A DNA stretch of 56,547 bases from contig NZ_JACSWC010000163.1 of the NCBI RefSeq assembly GCF_016888165.1, positions 1 to 56,547 on the forward strand, written 5' to 3'. The notes under the pieces are model-generated. The model ran no database searches and had not been told where the DNA came from. It saw only the letters and a program-made list of their open reading frames with translations. A program made the translations under genes and the position numbers. This document shows positions 1,330 to 33,243 of this stretch, piece by piece. The DNA comes from Halomicronema sp. CCY15110 (lineage in GTDB: Bacteria; Cyanobacteriota; Cyanobacteriia; Phormidesmidales; Phormidesmidaceae). How positions within the stretch are numbered: position 1 is the stretch's first letter; each line of letters begins with the position of its first letter.

Positions 1330-3948
1330 ATGCAACCCACCAACCCGAATCAATTTACAGAGAAGGCGTGGCAGGCCATTGTCCGCACGCCGGAAATTGC
1401 CAAGGAAGCCAAGCACCAGCAGATTGAGAGCGAGCACCTGATGCGGGCGCTGCTGGAACAGGAAGGACTGGCGATTTCGGTATTTAACAAGGCCGAAGTG
1501 AACGTGCAGAATGTGCGCGATCGCACCACCGACTTCATTAGCAAACAGCCCAAAATCAGCAACTCGGGTGGCTCAGTGTACCTGGGCAACAGCCTGGACA
1601 AGCTGCTCGATCGCGCCGATGGCTATCGCAAAGACTTGGGCGACGAGTACATTTCCATCGAGCACCTGCTGCTGGCCTACGCCAAAGACGATCGCTTTGG
1701 GCAGGCGCTGTTGCGAGAATTTGGCTTAGACGAAACTAAGCTCAGAGGCATTATTAAAGAAGTGCGAGGGAACCAGAAAGTGACTGACCAGAACCCGGAA
1801 GGTAAATACGAAGCGCTGGAAAAATATGGCCGCGACCTGACGGAACTGGCGCGGTTGGGCAAGCTTGACCCGGTGATTGGGCGGGATGATGAGATTCGCC
1901 GCACGATTCAGATTTTGTCGCGGCGGACGAAGAACAACCCGGTGCTGATTGGTGAACCCGGTGTGGGCAAAACCGCGATCGCGGAGGGACTGGCCCAGCG
2001 CATCATCAGTAAGGACGTGCCGGAGTCGTTGCGCGATCGCAAAATCATCGCCCTCGACATGGGTGCCCTGATTGCCGGGGCCAAGTATCGCGGCGAATTT
2101 GAAGAGCGCCTGAAGGCCGTTCTCAAAGAAGTGCAGGATTCGGAAGGGCAGATGGTGCTGTTCATCGACGAGATTCATACTGTGGTTGGGGCGGGGGCGA
2201 CTCAGGGTTCGATGGATGCCGGCAACCTGCTGAAACCCATGCTGGCGCGGGGTGAACTGCGCTGTATTGGGGCGACCACCCTGGACGAGTATCGCAAGTA
2301 CATCGAGAAGGATGCCGCGCTGGAACGCCGCTTCCAGCAGGTCTTTATCGATCAACCCACCATCGAGGACACGATCTCGATTCTGCGAGGTCTGAAGGAG
2401 CGTTACGAAGTGCACCACGGGGTGAAAATTTCCGATAGTGCGCTGGTGGCGGCGGCGGTGCTGTCAACGCGGTACATCAGCGATCGCTTCTTGCCCGACA
2501 AGGCGATCGACCTGGTGGACGAGTCCGCCGCGAAGCTGAAGATGGAAATCACCTCCAAGCCGGAAGAACTGGACGAAGTCGATCGCAAGATCCTCCAGCT
2601 CGAAATGGAGCGCCTGTCCCTCAAAAATGAGACTGACGCCGCTTCGATCGATCGGCTAGAGCGCTTGGAAAAAGAACTCGCGGATCTGAAAGAAACCCAG
2701 TCCGGGCTGACTGCTCAGTGGCAGTCGGAAAAAGACCTGATTGACGGCATTCAATCCCTGCGAGAAGAGTTGGATCAGGTGAATATCGAAGTTCAGCAGG
2801 CGGAGCGCAACTATGACCTAAATCGCGCCGCCGAGTTGAAGTACGGCAAGCTCACTGACCTGCAACGAAAAGTGGAGCAAGCGGAAGAGAAGCTGGAAAA
2901 CGCCCAAACCAGCGGTCAATCGCTGCTGCGGGAAGAGGTGACGGAAGAAGACATCGCCGAAATCATCTCCAAGTGGACGGGTATTCCCGTTAGCAAACTG
3001 GTGGCGTCGGAAATGGAGAAGCTGCTGCTCCTAGAAGACGAACTGCACCAGCGGGTCATTGGTCAGGATGAAGCAGTCACCGCAGTATCCGACTCGATTC
3101 AGCGTAGCCGGGCCGGACTCGCCGACCCGAACCGGCCCATTGCCAGCTTTATTTTTCTCGGCCCCACGGGGGTCGGCAAGACGGAACTGGCGAAGGCACT
3201 GGCTTCCTACATGTTCGACACGGAAGACGCGATCGTGCGGATCGACATGTCGGAATACATGGAAAAGCACGCGGTCGCTCGCCTGATCGGGGCACCGCCG
3301 GGATACGTCGGTTTTGACGAAGGCGGTCAGCTCACCGAAGCGATTCGCCGTCGCCCCTATGCGGTCATCTTGTTCGACGAAATCGAGAAGGCTCACCCTG
3401 ATGTGTTCAACATCATGTTGCAAATTCTGGATGATGGTCGCCTGACCGACTCCCAAGGACGCACGGTAGATTTCCGCAATTCCGTGGTGATTATGACCAG
3501 CAACATCGGTTCCCAGTACATTCTGGATCTGGCGGGGGATGACTCGAAATATGACCTGATGCGCGATCGCGTCATGGAGGCCATGCGGTCTGAGTTCCGC
3601 CCTGAGTTCCTGAACCGGGTCGATGAGCTGATCATCTTCCACAGTTTGAAGCAGGAGCAACTGAAGGAAATCGTCAGGCTGCAAATCCAACGGCTAGAGC
3701 AGCGGCTGGGCGATCGCAAGATGGCCCTCGTGCTCTCGGAAGAGGCGCTGGACTGGGTGGCCCACGTCGGCTACGACCCCGTTTACGGGGCGCGTCCGCT
3801 CAAGCGCGCCATCCAAAAAGAGTTGGAGACGCCTCTGGCGAAGGGTATCCTGCGGGGCGATTTTGTGAACGGCGATCGCATCTACGCCGAGGTGGAAAAC
3901 GAACGCCTCGTCTTCAAACGCCAAGCCCCCGAACTCGCGACAGTGTAG
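1330..3948 (+). CDS. clpB: ATP-dependent disaggregase ClpB
   Basis: An 872-residue, full-length Hsp100 disaggregase that works with DnaK in the cytoplasm to resolve protein aggregates. The order is: Clp N-domain (about 1-145), first AAA+ module with Walker A GEPGVGKT (208-215) and Walker B LFIDEIHT, a coiled-coil M domain (about 405-525), second AAA+ module with Walker A GPTGVGKT (near 611) and [10 protein letters not shown], then the C-terminal domain ending ELATV. The start [17 protein letters not shown] matches cyanobacterial ClpB1-type proteins. A GGAGAG ribosome site precedes the ATG. The gene is intact, although its last 80 or so bases are duplicated downstream at 4730-4814. Confidence 0.97.
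3866..3948 (+). repeat. Direct repeat copy A: clpB 3' end
   Basis: The last 80 or so bases of clpB, repeated in the same orientation at 4730-4814. From 3875 to 3948 the two copies share roughly nine bases in ten. The GCGATCGC octamer at 3872-3879 exists in this copy and is degenerate in the other. The pair encloses the MNT/HEPN module. Confidence 0.8.
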
Positions 3949-21015: not shown

Positions 21016-24000
21016 TTGTCTATTAAGCCGCGCCGAGAACTCACCACTAAACCCAAGTTGCTGGTCGTTGATGATGAACCAGACAATCTTGATTTGCTGT
21101 ACCGCACGTTTTATCGAAAGTTCACAGTGCTGCGGGCAGAAAGTGGACATGCAGCATTAGCAACCTTAGTTGAGCACCCAGACGTCGCCGTCATCATTTC
21201 CGACCAGCGGATGCCGGGCATGAGCGGCACCGAATTTTTGCGCCAGACAGCGGTGCAGTATCCCAACATCATGCGGATTATTTTGACGGGATATACGGAT
21301 GTCGAAGATCTGGTCGGGGCGATTAACCAGGGCAAAGTCTTCAAATATGTGACCAAACCTTGGGAAGCGCATGACCTCAAGCTGGTGGTCACCCAGGCGC
21401 TGGATGCCCATCAGCTCTTGCGATCGCGCACCGAAGAATTAGAGCGCGTCTTGCAGCAAGAAACGTTGCTGAACGCGATGACCAACACCATTCGTAGTGC
21501 CGACACGGCACAAGCGATGATGCAGACCGTGGTCGAAACCGTCGGTCAACATATGGGGGCCGATATTTGCGTTTTACAGCCGCTGGGGGAAGCGGCCACT
21601 ACGGTCACCGCCACGATTTACACGGCGGCGGCGCTGACCGACCGTGAGACCACGCTGTTGCCGTCAGACTTGGCCTGGGCCGTGACCGAAATGACCGCGC
21701 TCAACGCTGGATCCATCTCCACTAACGAGGATCATCCAGCCGGGGCAGCCTGCGCTGACTTAGATGTGCAGGCCAGTCTATTAGTGCCGCTGATCAGCAA
21801 ACAGCAACCGCTGGCGGTGCTGGCGCTGCATCGCTGTGGCGCTACCGATACCTGGGGTGAGAGCGATCGCCAACTGCTGGCCAACGTCGCGACCCAAACG
21901 GCTCTGGCGCTATCGCAGGCGCTGACCTACGAGCAGGTGCAAGCCCTGGCGCGGCGCGAACAACTCCTCAATGCGGTAACCCAAGCCATTCGCTCGAGTT
22001 TGGAGCCCCAGGCCATTTTTGCGGCCATCACGCAGGAACTGGGGCAGGTGTTATCGGTCGATAGCTGTGTGCTGTCGCTGTGGACGGCAGCGGACGATTA
22101 TATGCAGTGTGTGGGCCTGTACGAAGCGCATCCCGACGGCAGTCCGGTGCCGCACACCTCAGAGGCTGATCCGGTGTTGCCGCGATCGCAAACCCCCATT
22201 CGTCACAACCCGGTTTTGCAAGAGCTGTTAATCACCCAGCAGCCCATCCAGATTGATGATCTGAGTCAGCATCCGGAAATGAGGATGCAAGATCAACCTC
22301 GGCGGTCAGGCGGAGCGCGATCGCTGCTGGTGGTGCCGTTGATGACCGAAAGCCAAATCATTGGCAGCATTTCCCTACGCCACATTCATCGCCCCCACCC
22401 TTGGCAACCTGGAGAAGTTGAATTGGCGCAGTCGGTTGCCAGCCAAGCAGCGATCGCGGTGCAGCAGTCTCGCTTATACCAAAAAACCCGCGAGCAAACT
22501 GAACAACTGATGGCGCTTGATCGCCAAAAAACCGAATTCTTCCAAAATATCTCCCACGAGTTTCGCACCCCCCTGACGCTGACCTTAGGCCCCTTAGAAA
22601 CCGCCGTCAGCCATGGCCGGGGATTAACTTTAGAAGAGTCCACCGTTGCCCTGCGCAATGCTCGGCGCTTACTGCGATTAGTGAATCAACTACTCGATTT
22701 ACAGCGGCTCGATGCCGGACGCATGCAGCCGACCTTTCGTCCCGTAAATGTTGCAGCCTTCATCGAAGACGTGGTGACGGCTTTTCAGCCTTACTGCGAG
22801 CGGCAGGGTTTGCAGTTACAGACCCACCTCACCGGCGATTCCATAGTCTTTCTCGATCTCGAAAAGTTTGACAAGGTGCTCTATAACCTCTTGTCTAACG
22901 CGGTGAAATTCACCCCCACAGGCGGCACCATAAGCGTCGTTTTAGAAGCTACTGATAGTCACTGCACGGTCAAGGTCAGCGATACCGGCATCGGTATCCA
23001 CGCCGATCAATTACCGCATTTGTTTGACCGATTCCGACAGGCCGATGGCTCCACTAATCGGCGCTATGAAGGGACGGGACTTGGCCTCGCCCTGGTCAAA
23101 GAACTGGTGTCCTTGCATCACGGCAGCATTGACGTGGCCTCGACCTATGGCCAGGGCACCACCTTTGCGATTACGCTACCGACGGGTCATCACCATTTGC
23201 CCGCTGAGCAAATCGTCACGCAGGCCGCCACCATTGAGATCAGCCGTGCCGAAGTGGAACTGGCCGATATCTCGATGATGGCAGAGGACGAGGCCGCGGC
23301 TGCGATGACCCACACCTCACCGAATGGACTGACCGGCATGCCGCGCATCCTAGTCGTGGATGATAACTCCGACTTGCGATCGTATATCTCGAATGTCTTG
23401 CAGCGCCAAGGCTATCAGGTGCGCACGGCCCAGGATGGTGTGGCGGCCCTGGCCATGCTCGAAACGTTTACACCCAACTTGATTCTGACCGATTTAATGA
23501 TGCCCGGCATTTCCGGCTTAGAACTGTTACGGCAGATTCGGCAAACTGAATCTTTGCGGAGTATTCCTATCGTGTTACTAACGGCTAAGGTGGATGACGA
23601 AACCCGCATCGAAGGGGTGGAACAGGGCGCAGATGCCTATTTGGGTAAGCCATTCAACGATCGCGAACTGCTCGCCGAAGTGCGCAATTTATTAGCGCTC
23701 AAGGCAAATGAGCAAAAGGTGCGAGAGCTCAATCAATACTTGACTGAGTCGGTGTTGCGGCGGTTTTTGCCAGAGACACTGGTCAACAAAGCCGCAGCCG
23801 GTGATTTGCAACTGGTCTTGCAGCCCGAGCCCCGCCAGATTGCCGTACTGTTTAGCGATATTGTCAGCTTTACCCCGTTGTCCGATCGCTTGGGGCCACG
23901 GCGCTTGGCCCAGGTCTTGAATGAATATCTCAATGCCATGACGGAAGCCATTTTCGCGAGCGGTGGCACGGTCGATAAATTCATGGGAGATGGTGTCTTA

Positions 24001-24384
24001 GCCTTGTTTGGGGCTCCCGAAGAGCTGCCGCCTGACGAACAGGCGCGGCGGGCGATCGCGGCGGTTCATTGCATGCACGACACCCTGGATCAATTGAATC
24101 AGCAATGGCAAACCCAGGATATTCCTGAAATCCGAGTGCGCTATGGCATTCATCAGGGCGATGCTGTCGTCGGCATGTTTGGGGGAGCCGCGCGGGCGGA
24201 CTACACGGCGATCGGCCCCTGCGTCAACATTGCCTCGCGCCTACAAGAAGTCGCCGAGCCCAATGGCGTTTTGGTCTCGGCGACTCTGGCCCAGCACTTG
24301 CCCAAAGAGACGATAGTCTCCTGCTATACGGCGCAGCTACGCGGCCTCCAAGTCCCGCTGCAGGTCTGCAGCATTCAGCTATGA
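21016..24384 (+). CDS. Hybrid kinase-adenylate cyclase (REC-GAF-GAF-HK-REC-CHD)
   Basis: A 1122-residue cytoplasmic signalling protein. In order: receiver 1 (D63, K114, SDQRMPGMSG type), GAF 1 (about 160-305), GAF 2 (about 315-485), HisKA with NISHEFRTPL (H514), HATPase (NLLSNAVKFTPTGG; DTGIG; GTGLGLAL), receiver 2 (D826, K878) and a class III cyclase (about 935-1090). The cyclase keeps both metal aspartates (D948, D992), the adenine-selecting K988 and D1062, and the catalytic N1071 and R1075, so active cAMP synthesis is predicted. The start is TTG 21016; no ATG is available in frame, and a GAGG sits very close. Neither GAF has a bilin cysteine. Confidence 0.93.
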   Translation: MSIKPRRELTTKPKLLVVDDEPDNLDLLYRTFYRKFTVLRAESGHAALATLVEHPDVAVIISDQRMPGMSGTEFLRQTAVQYPNIMRIILTGYTDVEDLVGAINQGKVFKYVTKPWEAHDLKLVVTQALDAHQLLRSRTEELERVLQQETLLNAMTNTIRSADTAQAMMQTVVETVGQHMGADICVLQPLGEAATTVTATIYTAAALTDRETTLLPSDLAWAVTEMTALNAGSISTNEDHPAGAACADLDVQASLLVPLISKQQPLAVLALHRCGATDTWGESDRQLLANVATQTALALSQALTYEQVQALARREQLLNAVTQAIRSSLEPQAIFAAITQELGQVLSVDSCVLSLWTAADDYMQCVGLYEAHPDGSPVPHTSEADPVLPRSQTPIRHNPVLQELLITQQPIQIDDLSQHPEMRMQDQPRRSGGARSLLVVPLMTESQIIGSISLRHIHRPHPWQPGEVELAQSVASQAAIAVQQSRLYQKTREQTEQLMALDRQKTEFFQNISHEFRTPLTLTLGPLETAVSHGRGLTLEESTVALRNARRLLRLVNQLLDLQRLDAGRMQPTFRPVNVAAFIEDVVTAFQPYCERQGLQLQTHLTGDSIVFLDLEKFDKVLYNLLSNAVKFTPTGGTISVVLEATDSHCTVKVSDTGIGIHADQLPHLFDRFRQADGSTNRRYEGTGLGLALVKELVSLHHGSIDVASTYGQGTTFAITLPTGHHHLPAEQIVTQAATIEISRAEVELADISMMAEDEAAAAMTHTSPNGLTGMPRILVVDDNSDLRSYISNVLQRQGYQVRTAQDGVAALAMLETFTPNLILTDLMMPGISGLELLRQIRQTESLRSIPIVLLTAKVDDETRIEGVEQGADAYLGKPFNDRELLAEVRNLLALKANEQKVRELNQYLTESVLRRFLPETLVNKAAAGDLQLVLQPEPRQIAVLFSDIVSFTPLSDRLGPRRLAQVLNEYLNAMTEAIFASGGTVDKFMGDGVLALFGAPEELPPDEQARRAIAAVHCMHDTLDQLNQQWQTQDIPEIRVRYGIHQGDAVVGMFGGAARADYTAIGPCVNIASRLQEVAEPNGVLVSATLAQHLPKETIVSCYTAQLRGLQVPLQVCSIQL

Positions 24385-26031: not shown

Positions 26032-27168
26032 ATGATGCATATTCTGGTGGTCAACTCAGATGCGGCCGTTCGCGATCGCCTTTATCAGTGGCTCGACGCC
26101 GCCGAGTATGACCTCACCCTTTGGGGCGAAGACCCGCAGGCGCTCGATCTCAAGCAATTTAGTGAACCGCTGTTGATCATTGGCGACTGGCAACAAGCCA
26201 CAGCGAGCGATTGTTTATCGACCTGGCAGGGCTGGAAGGCGCATCCTGATACCCCCCCGATTTTTTGCCTGATGCTGATTGCGACCGATCACCTAGATAA
26301 CTTAGTGCCAGCGCTAGCAGCGGGGGCTGATGATTGGCTCACCTACCCGCTGGATGAGATGACCTTGCGGGCTCGCCTCTTGGCCTGCCAGCAAGTGTTG
26401 CAGCTACGTCAAGATTTGCAAGCCCAAAAAGCCCAACTCCAGACTGAGCTAGCGGAAGCGGAAGCCTATGTGCGATCGCTGCTGCCTAAAGACCTCACCC
26501 AAAAGGTGCCGATCAATGCCCGCTTCATTCCGTCGAGTTCGTTGGGGGGCGACTGCTACGACTTTTACTGGCTCGACCCCGATTATCTCGTGATTTACTT
26601 GTTGGATGTTTCGGGGCACGGTCTGGGCTCGGCGCTGTTGTCAACATCGGTGCTGAATATGTTGCGATCGCAAGCGCTACCCGATGTGAACTTTTATCGC
26701 CCCGAAAAAGTGCTCCAGGCGCTAAATGACACGTTTCAGATGAACGACCAGAACGAAAAGTATTTCACCATGTGGTACGGCGTCTACAACCGCGCCAATC
26801 GCCAACTGATGTATGCGAGTGCGGGGCACCCACCGGCAGTGTTGATTTCCCCGCAACTGGGCCAGCAGCACCTGGTGGAAGCGTTGAAGACGCCAGGCCT
26901 GCCAATCGGGATGCTGCCCGACGTTCAATACAGTTGGAACCGCTGCGAGATTCCCCCCGGCAGCCGCTTGTACTTATTCAGCGACGGCGTTTACGAAATC
27001 AAGCAGTGGGACAACACCATCATGGGGCTAGAAGATTTTATCGAGATTTTATCGACCCATAACCTGAATCAGCCGATCGACGAGATTTTGACTCAGGTGA
27101 ATAGCCGCACCCAAGACCGCAGCGCCTTCTCCGACGACCTCTCGCTCCTAGAAGTTTGCCTAGACTGA
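26032..27168 (+). CDS. REC-domain SpoIIE/PP2C-type phosphatase
   Basis: A 378-residue serine/threonine phosphatase of the RsbU/SpoIIE type with an N-terminal receiver (about 1-120), a coiled linker (about 122-155) and the PP2C core (about 165-378). The phosphatase metal aspartates are present (GGDCYDFYWLD, LDVSGHGLGS, FSDGVYE, SDDLSLLE). The receiver keeps the likely phosphoacceptor D52, but the conserved lysine is replaced by tyrosine (Y105 in WLTYPLDEM), so ordinary phospho-signalling may be altered. Such enzymes dephosphorylate STAS antagonists in partner switching; no STAS gene is adjacent. Confidence 0.9.
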   Translation: MMHILVVNSDAAVRDRLYQWLDAAEYDLTLWGEDPQALDLKQFSEPLLIIGDWQQATASDCLSTWQGWKAHPDTPPIFCLMLIATDHLDNLVPALAAGADDWLTYPLDEMTLRARLLACQQVLQLRQDLQAQKAQLQTELAEAEAYVRSLLPKDLTQKVPINARFIPSSSLGGDCYDFYWLDPDYLVIYLLDVSGHGLGSALLSTSVLNMLRSQALPDVNFYRPEKVLQALNDTFQMNDQNEKYFTMWYGVYNRANRQLMYASAGHPPAVLISPQLGQQHLVEALKTPGLPIGMLPDVQYSWNRCEIPPGSRLYLFSDGVYEIKQWDNTIMGLEDFIEILSTHNLNQPIDEILTQVNSRTQDRSAFSDDLSLLEVCLD

Positions 27169-27936: not shown

Positions 27937-28395
27937 ATGTTAGCCACCTTGCATAACGCGACAGTCCAGGCTGATGGTCGCTTTCTGAATGATGAAGAAC
28001 TCCGAGGTTTACAGACGTATGTGCAGTCTTATAGAACTCGCTTAGCCACTTATCAGCTTTTGAGCCAACGAGGTGAGGCACTGGTGATGGCAGCGCTGCG
28101 ACAGTTAGCCCTGACCCATCGTCAAGAAGTGCAAACCCACAGTGGTAAATGCAAGCGCGATATGAATTACGCCCTGCAAGAAATCGCCAAGGCCGTGTTG
28201 ACGGGTGATCCGGAAGTTTTTCGCCAGGGCTTTTCACTGTGGATGGAAAACATTACCCGGGCAGTCCACAAGGGCAATTCAGCCGCTCGCGCTTACACCT
28301 GTCTGAAAGCAGAAATGCAAAAAGAGCTCCCCGCCGAGTGTGCCGCGCTGGTCGTCCCTTTCATCGATGATTTGATTACTTCATTTTCGGGATAG
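27937..28395 (+). CDS. Orphan phycobiliprotein-like bilin globin
   Basis: A 152-residue member of the phycobilisome globin-like family. ADGRFLNDEELRGLQTY (12-28) matches the family start, and GKCKRDMNYALQEI (70-84) carries the cysteine (C72) and the R-D pair of the chromophore-binding CxRD motif, so bilin attachment is plausible. It is too divergent to be a normal allophycocyanin or phycocyanin subunit and stands alone without apc or cpc genes. GAGGAAA before ATG 27937 fixes the start, although the frame is open from 27847. The next gene downstream encodes a bilin-type photoreceptor kinase. Confidence 0.82.
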   Translation: MLATLHNATVQADGRFLNDEELRGLQTYVQSYRTRLATYQLLSQRGEALVMAALRQLALTHRQEVQTHSGKCKRDMNYALQEIAKAVLTGDPEVFRQGFSLWMENITRAVHKGNSAARAYTCLKAEMQKELPAECAALVVPFIDDLITSFSG

Positions 28396-28902
28396 GAAGC
28401 TGAGCAGTTACACGCTTGTGGGGCACAAGCTACCCCCAACGACTGGGAACTGAATTTTTAGCCACCCGCCGCTGCCGCAAAGATTGCTAACGCGATCGCA
28501 GCTTTTGGGAAAAATCTGGGGATATTAAGCAGAACCCGATCGACTTAGTAATCAGACGTGCTTGCTGCCTAGATAGACAATCTGAATCCGGGATGACGAT
28601 GCAGAGGCGCTTTCAGCGTCATCCGCAGCCTAAATCCCCCCAAATGGACAGGTGTTTGCCCTCCTGGGAGGGGAGCAAAATCGGTTTTGGCTTCACCCGA
28701 ACTGACGTTAGAGCGGGCTGGGAGGCACCAGTAGATCGGGCTGGGAGGCACCAGTTCACACGAAACGAAGGGCGGCGTCTGCAACGCCTCAGCCTGAGTA
28801 ACCGGGCGAATGTCCTAGGGCAAAGGCCACTCGACCTGGGAGCCGGTGGCCGACAGGGCAGCTGGTTGGGAGCATCAATCCGGTCGATAGAGGAACCTCC
28901 GG
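28396..28902. other. Intergenic region with 19-bp repeat
   Basis: This 507-base gap has no supported gene. CGGGCTGGGAGGCACCAGT is present at 28714-28732 and again at 28737-28755, so a 23-base unit has been duplicated in tandem. It presumably contains the promoter for the kinase gene. Confidence 0.5.
28714..28755. repeat. Tandem duplication of a 23-base unit
   Basis: The 19-base core CGGGCTGGGAGGCACCAGT is exactly repeated with a four-base linker. It is 150-190 bases upstream of the photoreceptor kinase start. Confidence 0.55.
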
Positions 28903-31900
28903 GTGACAGAAACTGACATCACACTGGCTATGGTCAATCACCATTCCAAATCAAGGTCCGATGCGGCTCCGGCCATCAGCATCACTCCAGATTTGCTGCA
29001 TCAGGCCCTGGATGAAGTCTCCACGGCAATCTACATTAAAGATCGTGAACAACGATTGCAGTTTGTCAATCAGGCTTGTTGTCAACTCGTAGGGCAGCCC
29101 CGGCAGGCTTTGCTAGCAGCGACCGAAGCAGACTTGTTATCTCCAGCGATCGCCCAACGTCTGGCAGCATTAGACAGCGCTACTTGGCACGGACGCGGCA
29201 GCTCCGATCCGGTCACAGTCGTGGTGACACCAACAGATCAGTCGCCCTACACCGCCACCCGGCGCACTCAGTTAGCCACCGATGGGCAGTCACTGATTTG
29301 TTATTTAGAGGCCGTAACGGCGAGTGCCGCCGTCTCCCCTGGCGGATTGCCCACGACCTGGCCAAATACTCAGTTAGAAGCTCTGTTGGCCAATGTGCCA
29401 GCGGTCATTTATCAACTCCAGCGTTCTGCCCAAGGGGACTTGCAGTTTGGATTTATCAGTCCGGGGGCGTATGAGGTATTTGGGTTGGGCTCTGACCTGA
29501 TCTTGGCTAATGCCGCTCAAGTGTTAGACCACATTCATCGCCTCGATCGCCCTCGGTTTCAGGAAACGTTGTTGGAGTCGGCCGCCACCCTAGTCGCGTG
29601 GCGGTGGGAAGGGCGCTATTACAAACCCAACGGTCAGGTCGGCTGGCTACAAACCGTGGGCCGCCCCCAAGTAGGCTCCACGGGAGCGGTGGTGTGGGAT
29701 GGCCTGATGATGGATGTGACTAGCCGCAAGCAAGTCGAGGCGGCCACCATTGAACAAGCGGTGATGGAGCAAGCGATCGCGGATAACGAAACCCGCTTTC
29801 GCACCATTACAGAAACCATTCCTGGGGCGCTGCTGCAACTGCGGGTGCTGGCTGACGGCTATGCCATCGATTTTGTCAGCGATCGCATTCAAGCCCTCAC
29901 GGGATTGGCCCCAGTCGATTTAATGGCCGACGCTCAGACTTTTTTAGATCGGCTCCATCCGCGTGATAGCCAACGCTTTCAAGCCACCATTAACGAAGCG
30001 GCTCAGAGCCTGAGTCCCTGGAAGTTTGAGGGGCGCATTGTGGCGCTGAATGGCGACACCCGCTGGTGGCGATTGGATGCGATGCCCGTACCGCAAGAAC
30101 TGGGCGAAGTTGTCTTTTGTGGGGTGCTGCTCGATATCACCGAGCGCAAAACCATCGAAGAGGCCTATCGCGAAAACGCACATCAGCTCCGCATGGCGCT
30201 CAAGGTGTCGGCCATGGGGGTGTGGACCTGGGACATGGCGACGGATCAGATGGCCTGGACGACGGAACCCGGCACTTTGTTTGAAGCGTCGGCGGTCAGT
30301 TTTTGCGATACGTTCAATATGTATTTGCAGAATGTGCATCCCAGCGATCGCGAGCGGCTGCAACAAGCGGTCAGCCAAGCGGTCAGCACCGGCCAAGAGT
30401 ATCAAATCCAATATCGGCTCTTGCTCGGCGACGACACCAGCCGCTGGGTCGAAGAACGCGGCGGCCTGTGGCGCGACCCCGATGAATCGGTGCTCGGGCT
30501 CATGGGCACCGTCATCGACATCACCGATCGCCGCTTAGCCGAGGCCGCCCTGCAAGAGAGTGAAGAACGCAACCGCACGTTGATTAACAACATTCCGGGA
30601 GCGGTGTACCGTTGCAAAGCCGACAACAACTGGACGCTGCTGTTTCAAAGTGACGCGATCGCTGAAATCACTGGCTATCCCGTGGATCACCCCATCCATC
30701 AAGAAGAGTGGCGACTCATTCAGGGGGGCGATCGTGCGCGCGTTAACCAGGAAATCACCGCCGCGATCGCCCGCCGCCAACCCTTCGAAGTGGAATATCG
30801 CATCGGCCATGCCGATGGCAGCACCCGCTGGATCTTAGAGACCGGACAACCCATTCCCGATAGCACCGGCACCGTGCAATTAATTGACGGCGTCTTGACC
30901 GACATCACCCGCCGCAAAGAATCGGAAACCCAACTGCAAGACCTTGCCCGCCGCCAGGGACTGATCAATCGCATCTCCACTCAAATTCGCGACTCTTTGG
31001 AGCTGATGCCGCTCCTGCAAACCACGGTGGAAGCAGTGCGTAGCCAACTGGTGACCGATCGCGTCGTCGTCTATCGATTTGACACCGACTGGCAAGGCGA
31101 AGTCATTGTCGAAGATTGCGCCCCCACCTGGCCCTCTACCCTGGGAGCCATGGGGACGGACAACTGTTTTCCCACGGGGCTAGCCAATGATTACATGCAG
31201 GGCCGCGTACGCAGCATTGCCGACATTTATCAGGCCGGTTTGGAAGCCTGCCATGTGCAATACCTCGAAAACTTGCAAGTGCGGGCCAATCTCATCGTGC
31301 CGATTTTGCTCAAGCAACAGCTGTGGGGATTGCTGATTGCCCATGAATGTCGGCAACCGCGCCAGTGGACGACGGGCGAAGGCGAACTACTGAAAGCCTT
31401 GGCCGATCAGGTGGGACTAGCGATTGGTCAAGCCGATCTGTATGAGCAAGCCACCAGAAATGCGATACGAGCCCGGCAGCAAGCCGCCGATCTCAAGGCG
31501 ACCCTGGCCGAGTTGCAGCGCACCCAATCACAACTCGTCCAGACGGAAAAGATGTCGAGCTTGGGACAACTCGTGGCGGGCGTGGCCCATGAAATCAACA
31601 ACCCCGTGAGTTTTATCGATGGCAACGTAGTGCATGCAGCGGAATATACCGCAGACTTGCTCGCCTTGATTGCTCACTATCGGCAAACCTATCCTGACCC
31701 GCCGCCCGCCTTGCAACAAGCCATGGACGCCGTGGATTTAGATTTTTTGGCAGAAGATTTTCCAAAACTGCTGGAATCGATGCGAATTGGGGCGGAGCGC
31801 ATCAAAAGTATTGTGGCGTCACTGCGCACGTTTTCGCGCATGGATGAAGCCGAAATTAAAGCGGTAAACCTGCATGACGGGCTCGACAGCACCATCATGA

Positions 31901-32355
31901 TTTTGCAGCATCGCCTCAAGGCCCACGGCGATCGCCCCCAAATTTTGCTAGCGCGTCACTACGGCGAACTGCCCCTGGTGGAATGCTACGCGGGCAAGCT
32001 CAACCAGGTATTTATGAATTTGCTGAGTAACGCGATCGATGCGCTGGACGAGCAACTGGCAGCGGGTGAACAACTCGCGCCCCCGCAATTGGCGATCGCC
32101 ACCACGCAATTAACTCCCGATCAAGTCCGCATCAGCATTACTGACAATGGGGCAGGCATTCCCGCCGAGCAGCAGCGACGCATTTTTGAACCGTTTTACA
32201 CCACCAAGCCCATTGGTAAAGGCACCGGCATCGGCCTCTCCATCAGCTATCAAATCGTGACCGAACAGCATCGCGGCACCTTGACCTGTGAATCCCAACT
32301 TAGTCAAGGCACCACATTCCACGTCACGATTCCAATTCAGCAGGGTACCACTTAG
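28903..32355 (+). CDS. Five-PAS cyanobacteriochrome histidine kinase
   Basis: An 1150-residue sensor kinase with no membrane segment visible. Five PAS domains (about 28-140, 157-275, 297-415, 422-550, 555-680) precede a bilin-binding GAF domain (about 700-860). That GAF shows the DXCF motif DNCF (C755) and the canonical chromophore cysteine in ACH (C783), 28 residues apart, plus DYMQGRVRSIADIYQAGL and QVRANLIVPIL. This is the pattern of DXCF cyanobacteriochromes, which usually sense violet/blue versus green or yellow light. HisKA with AGVAHEINNP (H896) and HATPase (NLLSNAIDALDE; DNGAGIP; KGTGIGLSIS) follow. GTG 28903 is the likely start. No response regulator is adjacent. Confidence 0.9.
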   Translation: MTETDITLAMVNHHSKSRSDAAPAISITPDLLHQALDEVSTAIYIKDREQRLQFVNQACCQLVGQPRQALLAATEADLLSPAIAQRLAALDSATWHGRGSSDPVTVVVTPTDQSPYTATRRTQLATDGQSLICYLEAVTASAAVSPGGLPTTWPNTQLEALLANVPAVIYQLQRSAQGDLQFGFISPGAYEVFGLGSDLILANAAQVLDHIHRLDRPRFQETLLESAATLVAWRWEGRYYKPNGQVGWLQTVGRPQVGSTGAVVWDGLMMDVTSRKQVEAATIEQAVMEQAIADNETRFRTITETIPGALLQLRVLADGYAIDFVSDRIQALTGLAPVDLMADAQTFLDRLHPRDSQRFQATINEAAQSLSPWKFEGRIVALNGDTRWWRLDAMPVPQELGEVVFCGVLLDITERKTIEEAYRENAHQLRMALKVSAMGVWTWDMATDQMAWTTEPGTLFEASAVSFCDTFNMYLQNVHPSDRERLQQAVSQAVSTGQEYQIQYRLLLGDDTSRWVEERGGLWRDPDESVLGLMGTVIDITDRRLAEAALQESEERNRTLINNIPGAVYRCKADNNWTLLFQSDAIAEITGYPVDHPIHQEEWRLIQGGDRARVNQEITAAIARRQPFEVEYRIGHADGSTRWILETGQPIPDSTGTVQLIDGVLTDITRRKESETQLQDLARRQGLINRISTQIRDSLELMPLLQTTVEAVRSQLVTDRVVVYRFDTDWQGEVIVEDCAPTWPSTLGAMGTDNCFPTGLANDYMQGRVRSIADIYQAGLEACHVQYLENLQVRANLIVPILLKQQLWGLLIAHECRQPRQWTTGEGELLKALADQVGLAIGQADLYEQATRNAIRARQQAADLKATLAELQRTQSQLVQTEKMSSLGQLVAGVAHEINNPVSFIDGNVVHAAEYTADLLALIAHYRQTYPDPPPALQQAMDAVDLDFLAEDFPKLLESMRIGAERIKSIVASLRTFSRMDEAEIKAVNLHDGLDSTIMILQHRLKAHGDRPQILLARHYGELPLVECYAGKLNQVFMNLLSNAIDALDEQLAAGEQLAPPQLAIATTQLTPDQVRISITDNGAGIPAEQQRRIFEPFYTTKPIGKGTGIGLSISYQIVTEQHRGTLTCESQLSQGTTFHVTIPIQQGTT

Positions 32356-32373: not shown

Positions 32374-33012
32374 CTATTCGTTTCGTAGACTGAGTGGATC
32401 GCGGCCCGGCAACCGTTCCATCACGTCTAAGACGGCTTGCTGCGCGGCCAAAATATCCCGCTCTTCGCCCCCCAGATACAGCCGGCCAAAACTGCCCACC
32501 GAGGTGATTTGCAGAATATTGATCAACGCCGCTTTTTCCGCCTCATTAGCCGCCAGCGAGGCGTAGGCCGCAGGCTCTACCTCAAACACATAGAGCGTCT
32601 GCCCCGCCACGATCATGTTGCCACGACGGGTGCGATTAATCAGCTGCACATGATGCGAATCCAGATTGCGAATGACTTGACTCGATTTAATCTGCGGGCG
32701 TAGGCAATCGCGACGATCGACCCCCAAAACATCGAGCATCGCCTGACTAGCCGCGTGGATTTCGGCCTGACTGCTGGAGTGAATTTCTAACGTGCCGTAC
32801 AGGCGCTCAACCATGAGCACCGCTGGTCGCACCACCGCCGACTTGAGGGCAATGTCCATCAGGCGGTGCACTTCAATACCCGGCGCAATTTCGAGCCACA
32901 GGGAGGAATCGCCCGGCAAGGGCAAGAAACCAACTGACACCGTTCCCATAAAAGCGGCGTGTTGCGGTTGCAGATTGTCGATATATACGTAGCTGCGCAG
33001 ATCAACGCCCAA
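32374..33012 (-). CDS. ccmP: Carboxysome shell protein CcmP (BMC-T)
   Basis: A tandem-BMC shell protein whose first domain contains [20 protein letters not shown] and whose second contains [24 protein letters not shown] trimers of this type form a double layer with a gated pore in the carboxysome shell. The open frame extends to 33078, but starting at TTG 33012 ([10 protein letters not shown]) gives 212 residues and matches the known CcmP length and N-terminus; AGGAG and GAAGG lie upstream. It is unlinked to the main ccm cluster, as in other cyanobacteria, and converges on the kinase gene. Confidence 0.93.
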
Positions 33013-33243
33013 AGCCTTCGGTGCTCCTGTGTCTCCCCCGTCAGTATACCGGGCTAAGGCGACACCCATGAGGCACAAGCCGGGAAGGGATGAACAGCGG
33101 GCATCTAGACTCAGGCATGGCGGCGATCGCCAGCGCTAAGGGATCGGCGGGAAAATAACATCCCGGTAACGGCAGTGCTTGGGTGGCTGGGTGGCTGGGT
33201 CAGGTGCGGGTCTGGAGTCGGTACTTTAATTGCCCGCGCATCC

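What the first reader, a model, noticed from the sequence alone, without database searches (positions are those of the whole stretch)
28903..32355. DXCF-type cyanobacteriochrome in a five-PAS kinase
The GAF domain has both cysteines of DXCF photoreceptors (DNCF C755 and ACH C783) at exactly 28 residues' spacing, as I recall for the TePixJ GAF domain. Five PAS domains precede it. A violet/blue to green/yellow photocycle is predicted, feeding a kinase with no adjacent response regulator.
Basis: partly seen in the sequence, partly recalled or inferred. Interest (0 to 1): 0.6.

Follow-up and report, generated by a model that had tools for sequence, protein, structure and literature searches.

The report
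Blue-light sensor kinase, known type
This cyanobacterial gene encodes a sensor kinase whose light-sensing domain carries both cysteines of a well-known blue/green photoreceptor family; it looks like an ordinary, probably working, member, although some close relatives have lost key parts of the light sensor.

Summary
ORF 28903-32355 (+, 1150 aa) has five PAS domains, one GAF domain and a histidine kinase. C755 lies in D753-N-C-F and C783 precedes H784, 28 residues apart. Both align without a gap with the two bilin-binding cysteines of TePixJ, and an AlphaFold model has the cyanobacteriochrome GAF fold. The genome has one bilin reductase match, so phycocyanobilin is probably made. I file it as a DXCF cyanobacteriochrome histidine kinase: a new member of a known kind. 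Blue/green is the usual photocycle but cannot be proved from sequence.

Two corrections. 'No adjacent response regulator' holds only for the immediate neighbours: second upstream is a receiver-PP2C gene, and between them an orphan phycobiliprotein homologue. That order is kept in G001, G003 and G005, and in part in G002. But 9 of 19 other gene pairs scored are also kept in G003, so this is weak evidence. Second, the sensor is not uniformly kept: the 87.6%-identical G001 orthologue has Asp for the canonical Cys, G004 has DICC and CY, and the G002 copy has three stops.

The parts
28903..32355 (+). Five-PAS / GAF / histidine kinase gene (1150 aa, GTG start)
28993..29319 (+). PAS1 (residues 31-139); the least conserved domain in the full-length orthologues compared
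   Evidence: PAS_8 31-70 and PAS_4 36-139; identities
29452..29694 (+). PAS2 (PAS_3 match, residues 184-264)
29794..30138 (+). PAS3 (residues 298-412)
   Evidence: Pfam PAS
30217..30522 (+). PAS4 (residues 439-540)
   Evidence: Pfam PAS and PAS_3
30553..30936 (+). PAS5 (residues 551-678)
   Evidence: Pfam PAS_3; TIGR00229 551-678
31012..31425 (+). Cyanobacteriochrome GAF domain (residues 704-841)
   Evidence: Pfam GAF; PDB sequence hits; AlphaFold model, mean pLDDT 86.3; Foldseek matches
31159..31170 (+). DXCF motif D753-N754-C755-F756 (second Cys)
   Evidence: aligned with DPCF of TePixJ
31249..31254 (+). Canonical bilin-binding Cys783 and His784
   Evidence: aligned with ECH of TePixJ
31561..31626 (+). 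HisKA core with H896 (AHEINNP)
   Evidence: Pfam HisKA 887-908; motif position
31996..32340 (+). HATPase_c domain with N, G1, F and G2 boxes (box names recalled)
   Evidence: Pfam; motif positions
27937..28395 (+). Neighbour: orphan phycobiliprotein homologue (152 aa, CKRD motif); start placed at 27937 by comparison with relatives
   Evidence: PF00502 60 bits, cut-off 22.2; alignments; fold; tree
26032..27168 (+). Neighbour: degenerate receiver plus SpoIIE/PP2C phosphatase
   Evidence: Pfam; alignment A1
32374..33078 (-). Downstream neighbour on the other strand: CcmP, a beta-carboxysome protein
   Evidence: NCBIfam NF053796, 375 bits, cut-off 340

Best explanation
A light-responsive histidine kinase of the DXCF cyanobacteriochrome kind. 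Its single GAF domain binds phycocyanobilin (PCB) covalently through Cys783 and, as is typical of this family, probably isomerises much of it to phycoviolobilin (PVB). In the dark, Cys755 is joined to C10 of the bilin and the protein absorbs violet-blue light. Light turns the C15=C16 bond, the Cys755 bond breaks, and a longer-wave, most likely green-absorbing, state forms and can be driven back. The change passes into the kinase (H896) and alters phosphotransfer to a response regulator that the gene neighbourhood does not identify. The five PAS domains probably add dimer contacts or further inputs. Shown: gene, domains, both cysteines and their alignment, GAF fold. Inferred: bilin binding, colours, direction of kinase control, partner, role of the PAS domains.
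For: Both cysteines align without a gap with those of TePixJ. TePixJ pocket residues D492, C494, C522, H523 and N535 (passages of PMC6955287) correspond by counting to D753, C755, C783, H784 and N796; Q526 corresponds to Tyr787. The best solved-structure matches include cyanobacteriochromes (6oap 6.9e-43, TePixJ entries 1e-32 to 1e-31; TM-score by query 0.83 to 3w2z, 0.75 to TePixJ 4fof). Pfam reported no PHY domain at E 0.01. The genome has one ferredoxin-dependent bilin reductase match, 274 bits, cut-off 31, and 12 phycobilisome-family matches, six of them above 160 bits. The Trp that hinders PVB formation in red/green relatives is Gly751 here, and the position 61 residues after it, Ile in PVB-forming MCC3606390g2, is Ile812 here (positions from passages of PMC11284453; mapped by counting from the shared Asp, assuming no gap; residues). 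H896 and the ATP-binding motifs are present.
Against: No spectrum exists. The sensor is altered or the gene broken in three of the five other congeneric genomes: G001 Cys783 to Asp with Y724C, W730G, Y764N and G767N; G004 DICC and CY; G002 three in-frame stops. Light sensing by this kinase is therefore probably not essential in the genus. Photoproduct colour varies within the family. Pocket residue Q526 of TePixJ is not kept (Tyr787); it is Gln in only 1 of 29 rows.
Confidence: 0.75

Rival explanations
1. The GAF domain is a two-cysteine photosensor but keeps PCB (or a mixture) or tunes its photoproduct otherwise, so that the cycle is blue/orange or blue/teal and not blue/green.
For: Published DXCF members have teal, green or orange photoproducts (PMC5578081 passages). 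One pocket residue differs from TePixJ: Tyr787 for Q526. The residue after the DXCF Asp is Asn754, neither Val (as in PVB-forming MCC3606390g2) nor the Pro of TePixJ.
Against: Typical DXCF domains form PVB and are blue/green (PMC11284453, part 1 of 6 of the text). The beta2 residue, placed by the 12-residue spacing that follows from residue numbers in PMC5240096 (passages), seems to be Val734 and not the Phe linked with teal; this placing is inferred and not checked against a red/green sequence.
Confidence: 0.2
2. The GAF domain no longer senses light in this organism and serves as a structural or ligand-binding link, as seems likely for the close relative G001.
For: G001 (87.6% identical over the kinase) has lost the canonical Cys and four residues kept in 25 to 27 of 29 rows. 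Pairwise dN/dS of the GAF between G000 and G001 is 0.142 against 0.039-0.086 in PAS2-PAS5 and the kinase.
Against: The window copy keeps both cysteines and Tyr724, Trp730, Tyr764, Gly767 and His784. PAS1 has a similar dN/dS (0.134), so the rise is not special to the GAF, and G001-only against G000-only changes (GAF 13:6, kinase 12:7, PAS5 3:6) do not clearly single out the GAF.
Confidence: 0.06
3. Kinase, orphan phycobiliprotein and receiver-PP2C protein work as one light-signalling unit.
For: Same order and strand in G000, G001, G003 and G005, and in G002 as far as its contig reaches. In the 19 kb fetched around the three genes in G003 none of five further window genes was found (E 1e-8; matches of the hybrid kinase under 38% identity were not printed).
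Against: Of 21 gene pairs scored in window 11730-52135, 11 are kept in G003; without the two pairs of this block, 9 of 19, so two kept pairs are not surprising. Gaps of about 0.5 to 1.2 kb separate the three genes. G004, G011 and G012 have the kinase without the other two in the 19 kb fetched, and the receiver-PP2C gene is widespread (52 of 59 genomes at E 1e-40). The receiver is degenerate in this genus.
Confidence: 0.08

Closest known systems
TePixJ GAF (DXCF cyanobacteriochrome; PDB 4fof, 4glq, 3vv4)
   Same: GAF fold; second Cys in DXCF and canonical Cys-His 28 residues apart, ungapped alignment.
   Different: TePixJ is a methyl-accepting chemotaxis protein by its PDB name; here five PAS domains and a histidine kinase. 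Pocket residue Q526 is Tyr787 here. Photocycle not measured here.
Dual-sensor histidine kinase, PDB 6oap
   Same: Best sequence and structure match (6.9e-43; 45% identity in the Foldseek alignment); a bilin-type GAF in a histidine kinase by its name.
   Different: Has Tyr where Cys755 lies (DQYF), so it is not of the two-cysteine DXCF kind.
UirS (DXCF cyanobacteriochrome with a cognate regulator UirR)
   Same: DXCF cyanobacteriochrome (PMC5578081 passage); that it is a histidine kinase is recalled.
   Different: UirS has a named cognate regulator; none is evident here. Not compared by sequence.
Cyanobacterial BBAG (slr0149 type, bilin-binding globin), for the neighbour 27937-28395
   Same: Phycobiliprotein fold; the CXRD motif named in PMC10151467 (passages) is present as CKRD.
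   Different: This genome's V4R-flanked homologue, which fits the described BBAG cluster, is another gene (C225). The window gene groups with orphan homologues outside the six light-harvesting sequences.

Membership tests
DXCF cyanobacteriochrome | GAF domain of the cyanobacteriochrome type | tested here: met
DXCF cyanobacteriochrome | Second Cys in a DXCF motif | tested here: met
   D753-N-C755-F756, aligned with DPCF of TePixJ
DXCF cyanobacteriochrome | Canonical Cys in the bilin-attachment position | tested here: met
   C783 (followed by H784), aligned with ECH of TePixJ
DXCF cyanobacteriochrome | GAF without a PHY domain | tested here: met
   no PHY match in Pfam at E 0.01
DXCF cyanobacteriochrome | Covalent binding of PCB and, typically, conversion to PVB | not testable with these tools
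   needs expression with PCB; one bilin reductase match in the genome; heme oxygenase not searched
DXCF cyanobacteriochrome | Reversible C10 thioether and blue-absorbing dark state | not testable with these tools
   needs spectra of wild type and a Cys755 variant
Histidine kinase | HisKA with phospho-accepting His and HATPase_c | tested here: met
   both above Pfam cut-offs; H896 and ATP-binding motifs located; activity not tested
Two-component pair with neighbouring regulator | Cognate response regulator gene next to the kinase | tested here: not met
   immediate neighbours are a phycobiliprotein homologue and CcmP; the receiver-PP2C gene is second upstream and its receiver degenerate
Light-harvesting phycobiliprotein (neighbour 27937-28395) | Belongs to the light-harvesting clade | tested here: not met
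   the six own sequences form one side of a branch (100/96) without it; the program warned of long branches
Cyanobacterial BBAG (neighbour 27937-28395) | Lies in a cluster with V4R proteins | tested here: not met
   the genes on either side are receiver-PP2C and the kinase; two V4R genes lie beside another homologue on C225

The most novel reading that the evidence does not exclude
In this genus the kinase is becoming light-blind step by step: the same multi-PAS kinase exists with an intact two-cysteine sensor (window genome, G003, G005), with only the DXCF Cys left (G001), with an altered motif (G004) and as an apparently broken gene (G002). The kinase may keep a second job through its PAS domains, and the orphan phycobiliprotein beside it may be a bilin-binding partner and not an antenna protein.
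Probability: 0.12. Interest if true: 0.5.

Novelty: new member of a known kind. Interest (0 to 1): 0.25.

Why it matters
As a single protein it adds one more candidate to a well-studied family: 58 of 59 genomes searched (the own one included) have a GAF match at E 1e-30 or better. Its modest value is comparative. Closely related kinases with an intact sensor (window genome, G005) and with a sensor lacking the canonical Cys (G001) would allow a direct test of what the photosensor contributes to a multi-PAS kinase.

Tried and rejected
I first thought, from memory, that His784 after the canonical Cys argued against PVB formation. The alignment shows that TePixJ itself has Cys-His, so I dropped this. 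I considered the receiver-PP2C protein as the cognate regulator: its receiver scores below the Pfam cut-off (22.5 against 30.2 bits); the Lys before the conserved Pro is replaced in 4 of 4 congeneric rows aligned and kept in 3 of 3 rows outside the genus; the likely phospho-acceptor column is Glu in G003 (meaning of these columns recalled). I considered the neighbouring phycobiliprotein as a BBAG; the V4R-flanked copy is another gene. I thought the kept gene order would show a functional unit; the control weakened this: 11 of 21 pairs kept, 9 of 19 without the block itself. That control has limits: positions were entered by hand, two pairs with an unfound gene count as not kept, one match spans two genes, and the last pair skips genes without a match. 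Synonymous distances are large (dS 0.5-1.1 between G000 and G001), so the dN/dS values are rough. Rfam gave no match in the window at gathering scores. No held paper has all four terms cyanobacteriochrome, Leptolyngbya, histidine kinase, blue-absorbing. The papers on DXCF lineages with predictable photocycles (10.1039/c4pp00486h) and on Acaryochloris DXCF proteins (PMC5798301) are not held, so colour prediction rests on passages of other papers.

Full report
Observation. The window holds an ORF at 28903-32355 (+) of 1150 codons. Pfam gives PAS families over the N-terminal part, GAF at 704-841, HisKA and HATPase_c, each above its cut-off. Cut into five pieces, residues 1-685 give a PAS family above its cut-off in each of the five. 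Cysteines 755 and 783 are 28 apart.

Is it the right place? In the phmmer alignment to TePixJ (3vv4) the window sequence and TePixJ run without a gap from DNCF/DPCF to ACH/ECH. TePixJ C494 is the cysteine joined to C10; D492, C522, H523, Q526 and N535 are described around the bilin (passages of PMC6955287). By counting in the alignment they map to D753, C755, C783, H784, Tyr787 and N796 here. The AlphaFold model made from 29 aligned GAF rows has mean pLDDT 86.3 and pTM 0.82. The best Foldseek matches are cyanobacteriochromes and related bilin GAF domains. Side chains in the model were not inspected.

Comparison set. A search of 59 genomes (own included) with the GAF domain found a match at E 1e-30 or better in 58. 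It returned 30 loci of many more matches; I aligned 29 and left out L013 (G002) because of a stop. DXCF is present in 27 of 29, the canonical Cys in 26 of 29, both in 24 of 29. So the motif pair is ordinary in this group.

Chromophore and colour. The own genome has a single bilin reductase match, 274 bits over a cut-off of 31, and 12 phycobilisome-family matches, so PCB is very probably available. Heme oxygenase was not searched. Typical DXCF domains bind PVB and switch between blue and green (PMC11284453, part 1 of 6 of the text), but teal and orange photoproducts are known (PMC5578081 passages). Three positions matter for PVB formation in red/green relatives (passages of PMC11284453). Here there is no Trp at 751 and Ile at 812, which fit PVB formation; the third, Asn754, says nothing clear. 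I take blue/green as most likely and do not regard it as shown.

Kinase and output. H896 and the ATP-binding motifs are in place. Immediate neighbours are a phycobiliprotein homologue upstream (same strand) and CcmP downstream (other strand). The next gene upstream, 26032-27168, is a receiver joined to a SpoIIE/PP2C phosphatase. Its receiver scores 22.5 bits, under the cut-off of 30.2. In the alignment of seven sequences the Lys before the conserved Pro is Tyr or His in all four congeners and Lys in the three others, and the likely phospho-acceptor column is Glu in G003. It is thus a poor candidate for phosphotransfer. A hybrid kinase with two receivers lies further upstream at 21016-24384.

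Neighbourhood control. The order receiver-PP2C, phycobiliprotein homologue, kinase is kept in G001, G003 and G005; in G002 the contig begins inside the first gene. G004, G011 and G012 have the kinase without the other two in the 19 kb fetched. DNA searches of G003 with window 12400-52200 let me score 21 gene pairs by hand-entered positions: 11 are kept, or 9 of 19 without the two pairs of this block. Two kept pairs are thus near expectation. I do not claim a functional unit.

The phycobiliprotein homologue. The likely start is 27937, where related sequences start. It has the CXRD motif as CKRD and lacks the loop that reads PGGN in five of this genome's six light-harvesting sequences. The model (mean pLDDT 84.4) matches allophycocyanin and the bilin-binding domain of ApcE. 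In a 33-row tree it groups with orphan homologues outside the light-harvesting clade; the program warned of long branches. BBAGs are described as bilin-binding phycobiliprotein paralogues of unknown function (passages of PMC10151467). The copy beside two V4R genes in this genome is on C225, so the window gene is a further paralogue.

Sensor change in relatives. The G001 orthologue is 87.6% identical but has Asp for Cys783, and Y724C, W730G, Y764N and G767N, at positions kept in 25 to 27 of 29 rows. G004 reads DICC and CY. The G002 copy has three in-frame stops; its genome is in about 1050 contigs, so assembly error is possible. G005 matches in two frames in both the kinase and the receiver-PP2C gene, which I take as sequencing error. 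G000-G001 dN/dS is 0.142 in the GAF and 0.134 in PAS1, 0.039-0.086 elsewhere; synonymous distances are large, so this is only a hint. G001-only against G000-only changes are 13:6 in the GAF, 12:7 in the kinase and 3:6 in PAS5. Cyanobacteriochromes that lack the canonical Cys and attach through the second Cys are known as the DXCIP group (PMC5578081 passage), but G001 keeps DNCF.

Verdict. A real, probably working DXCF cyanobacteriochrome histidine kinase; a new member of a known kind. The most interesting part is comparative: loss or change of the light sensor among close relatives.

Noticed in passing
27937-28395 (+): Orphan phycobiliprotein homologue with a CKRD motif, outside the light-harvesting clade and distinct from the V4R-associated copy of this genome.
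   Followed up: partly
L011 (G001 C8), GAF match 1501-2061 minus strand: Close orthologue keeps DNCF but has Asp at the canonical Cys and four other changes at mostly conserved positions: probable loss or change of bilin binding.
   Followed up: partly
L026 and L028 (G027 C46, G043 C12): Two GAF domains from different families keep DXCF but have Ala or Glu at the canonical Cys.
   Followed up: no
L072:2704-6099 (G002): The kinase orthologue has three in-frame stops while the phycobiliprotein homologue beside it is open.
   Followed up: partly
26032-27168 (+): Receiver-PP2C gene with a match in 52 of 59 genomes at E 1e-40; in the four congeneric copies aligned the receiver has lost the conserved Lys.
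   Followed up: partly
21016-24384 (+): Receiver-GAF-GAF-kinase-receiver-cyclase hybrid protein, 1122 aa.
   Followed up: no
28709-28755: Two copies of a 23-base tandem repeat in the gap upstream of the kinase.
   Followed up: no
L111 (own genome C277), 802-2076: A second orphan phycobiliprotein homologue lies beside a phycobilisome linker protein.
   Followed up: partly
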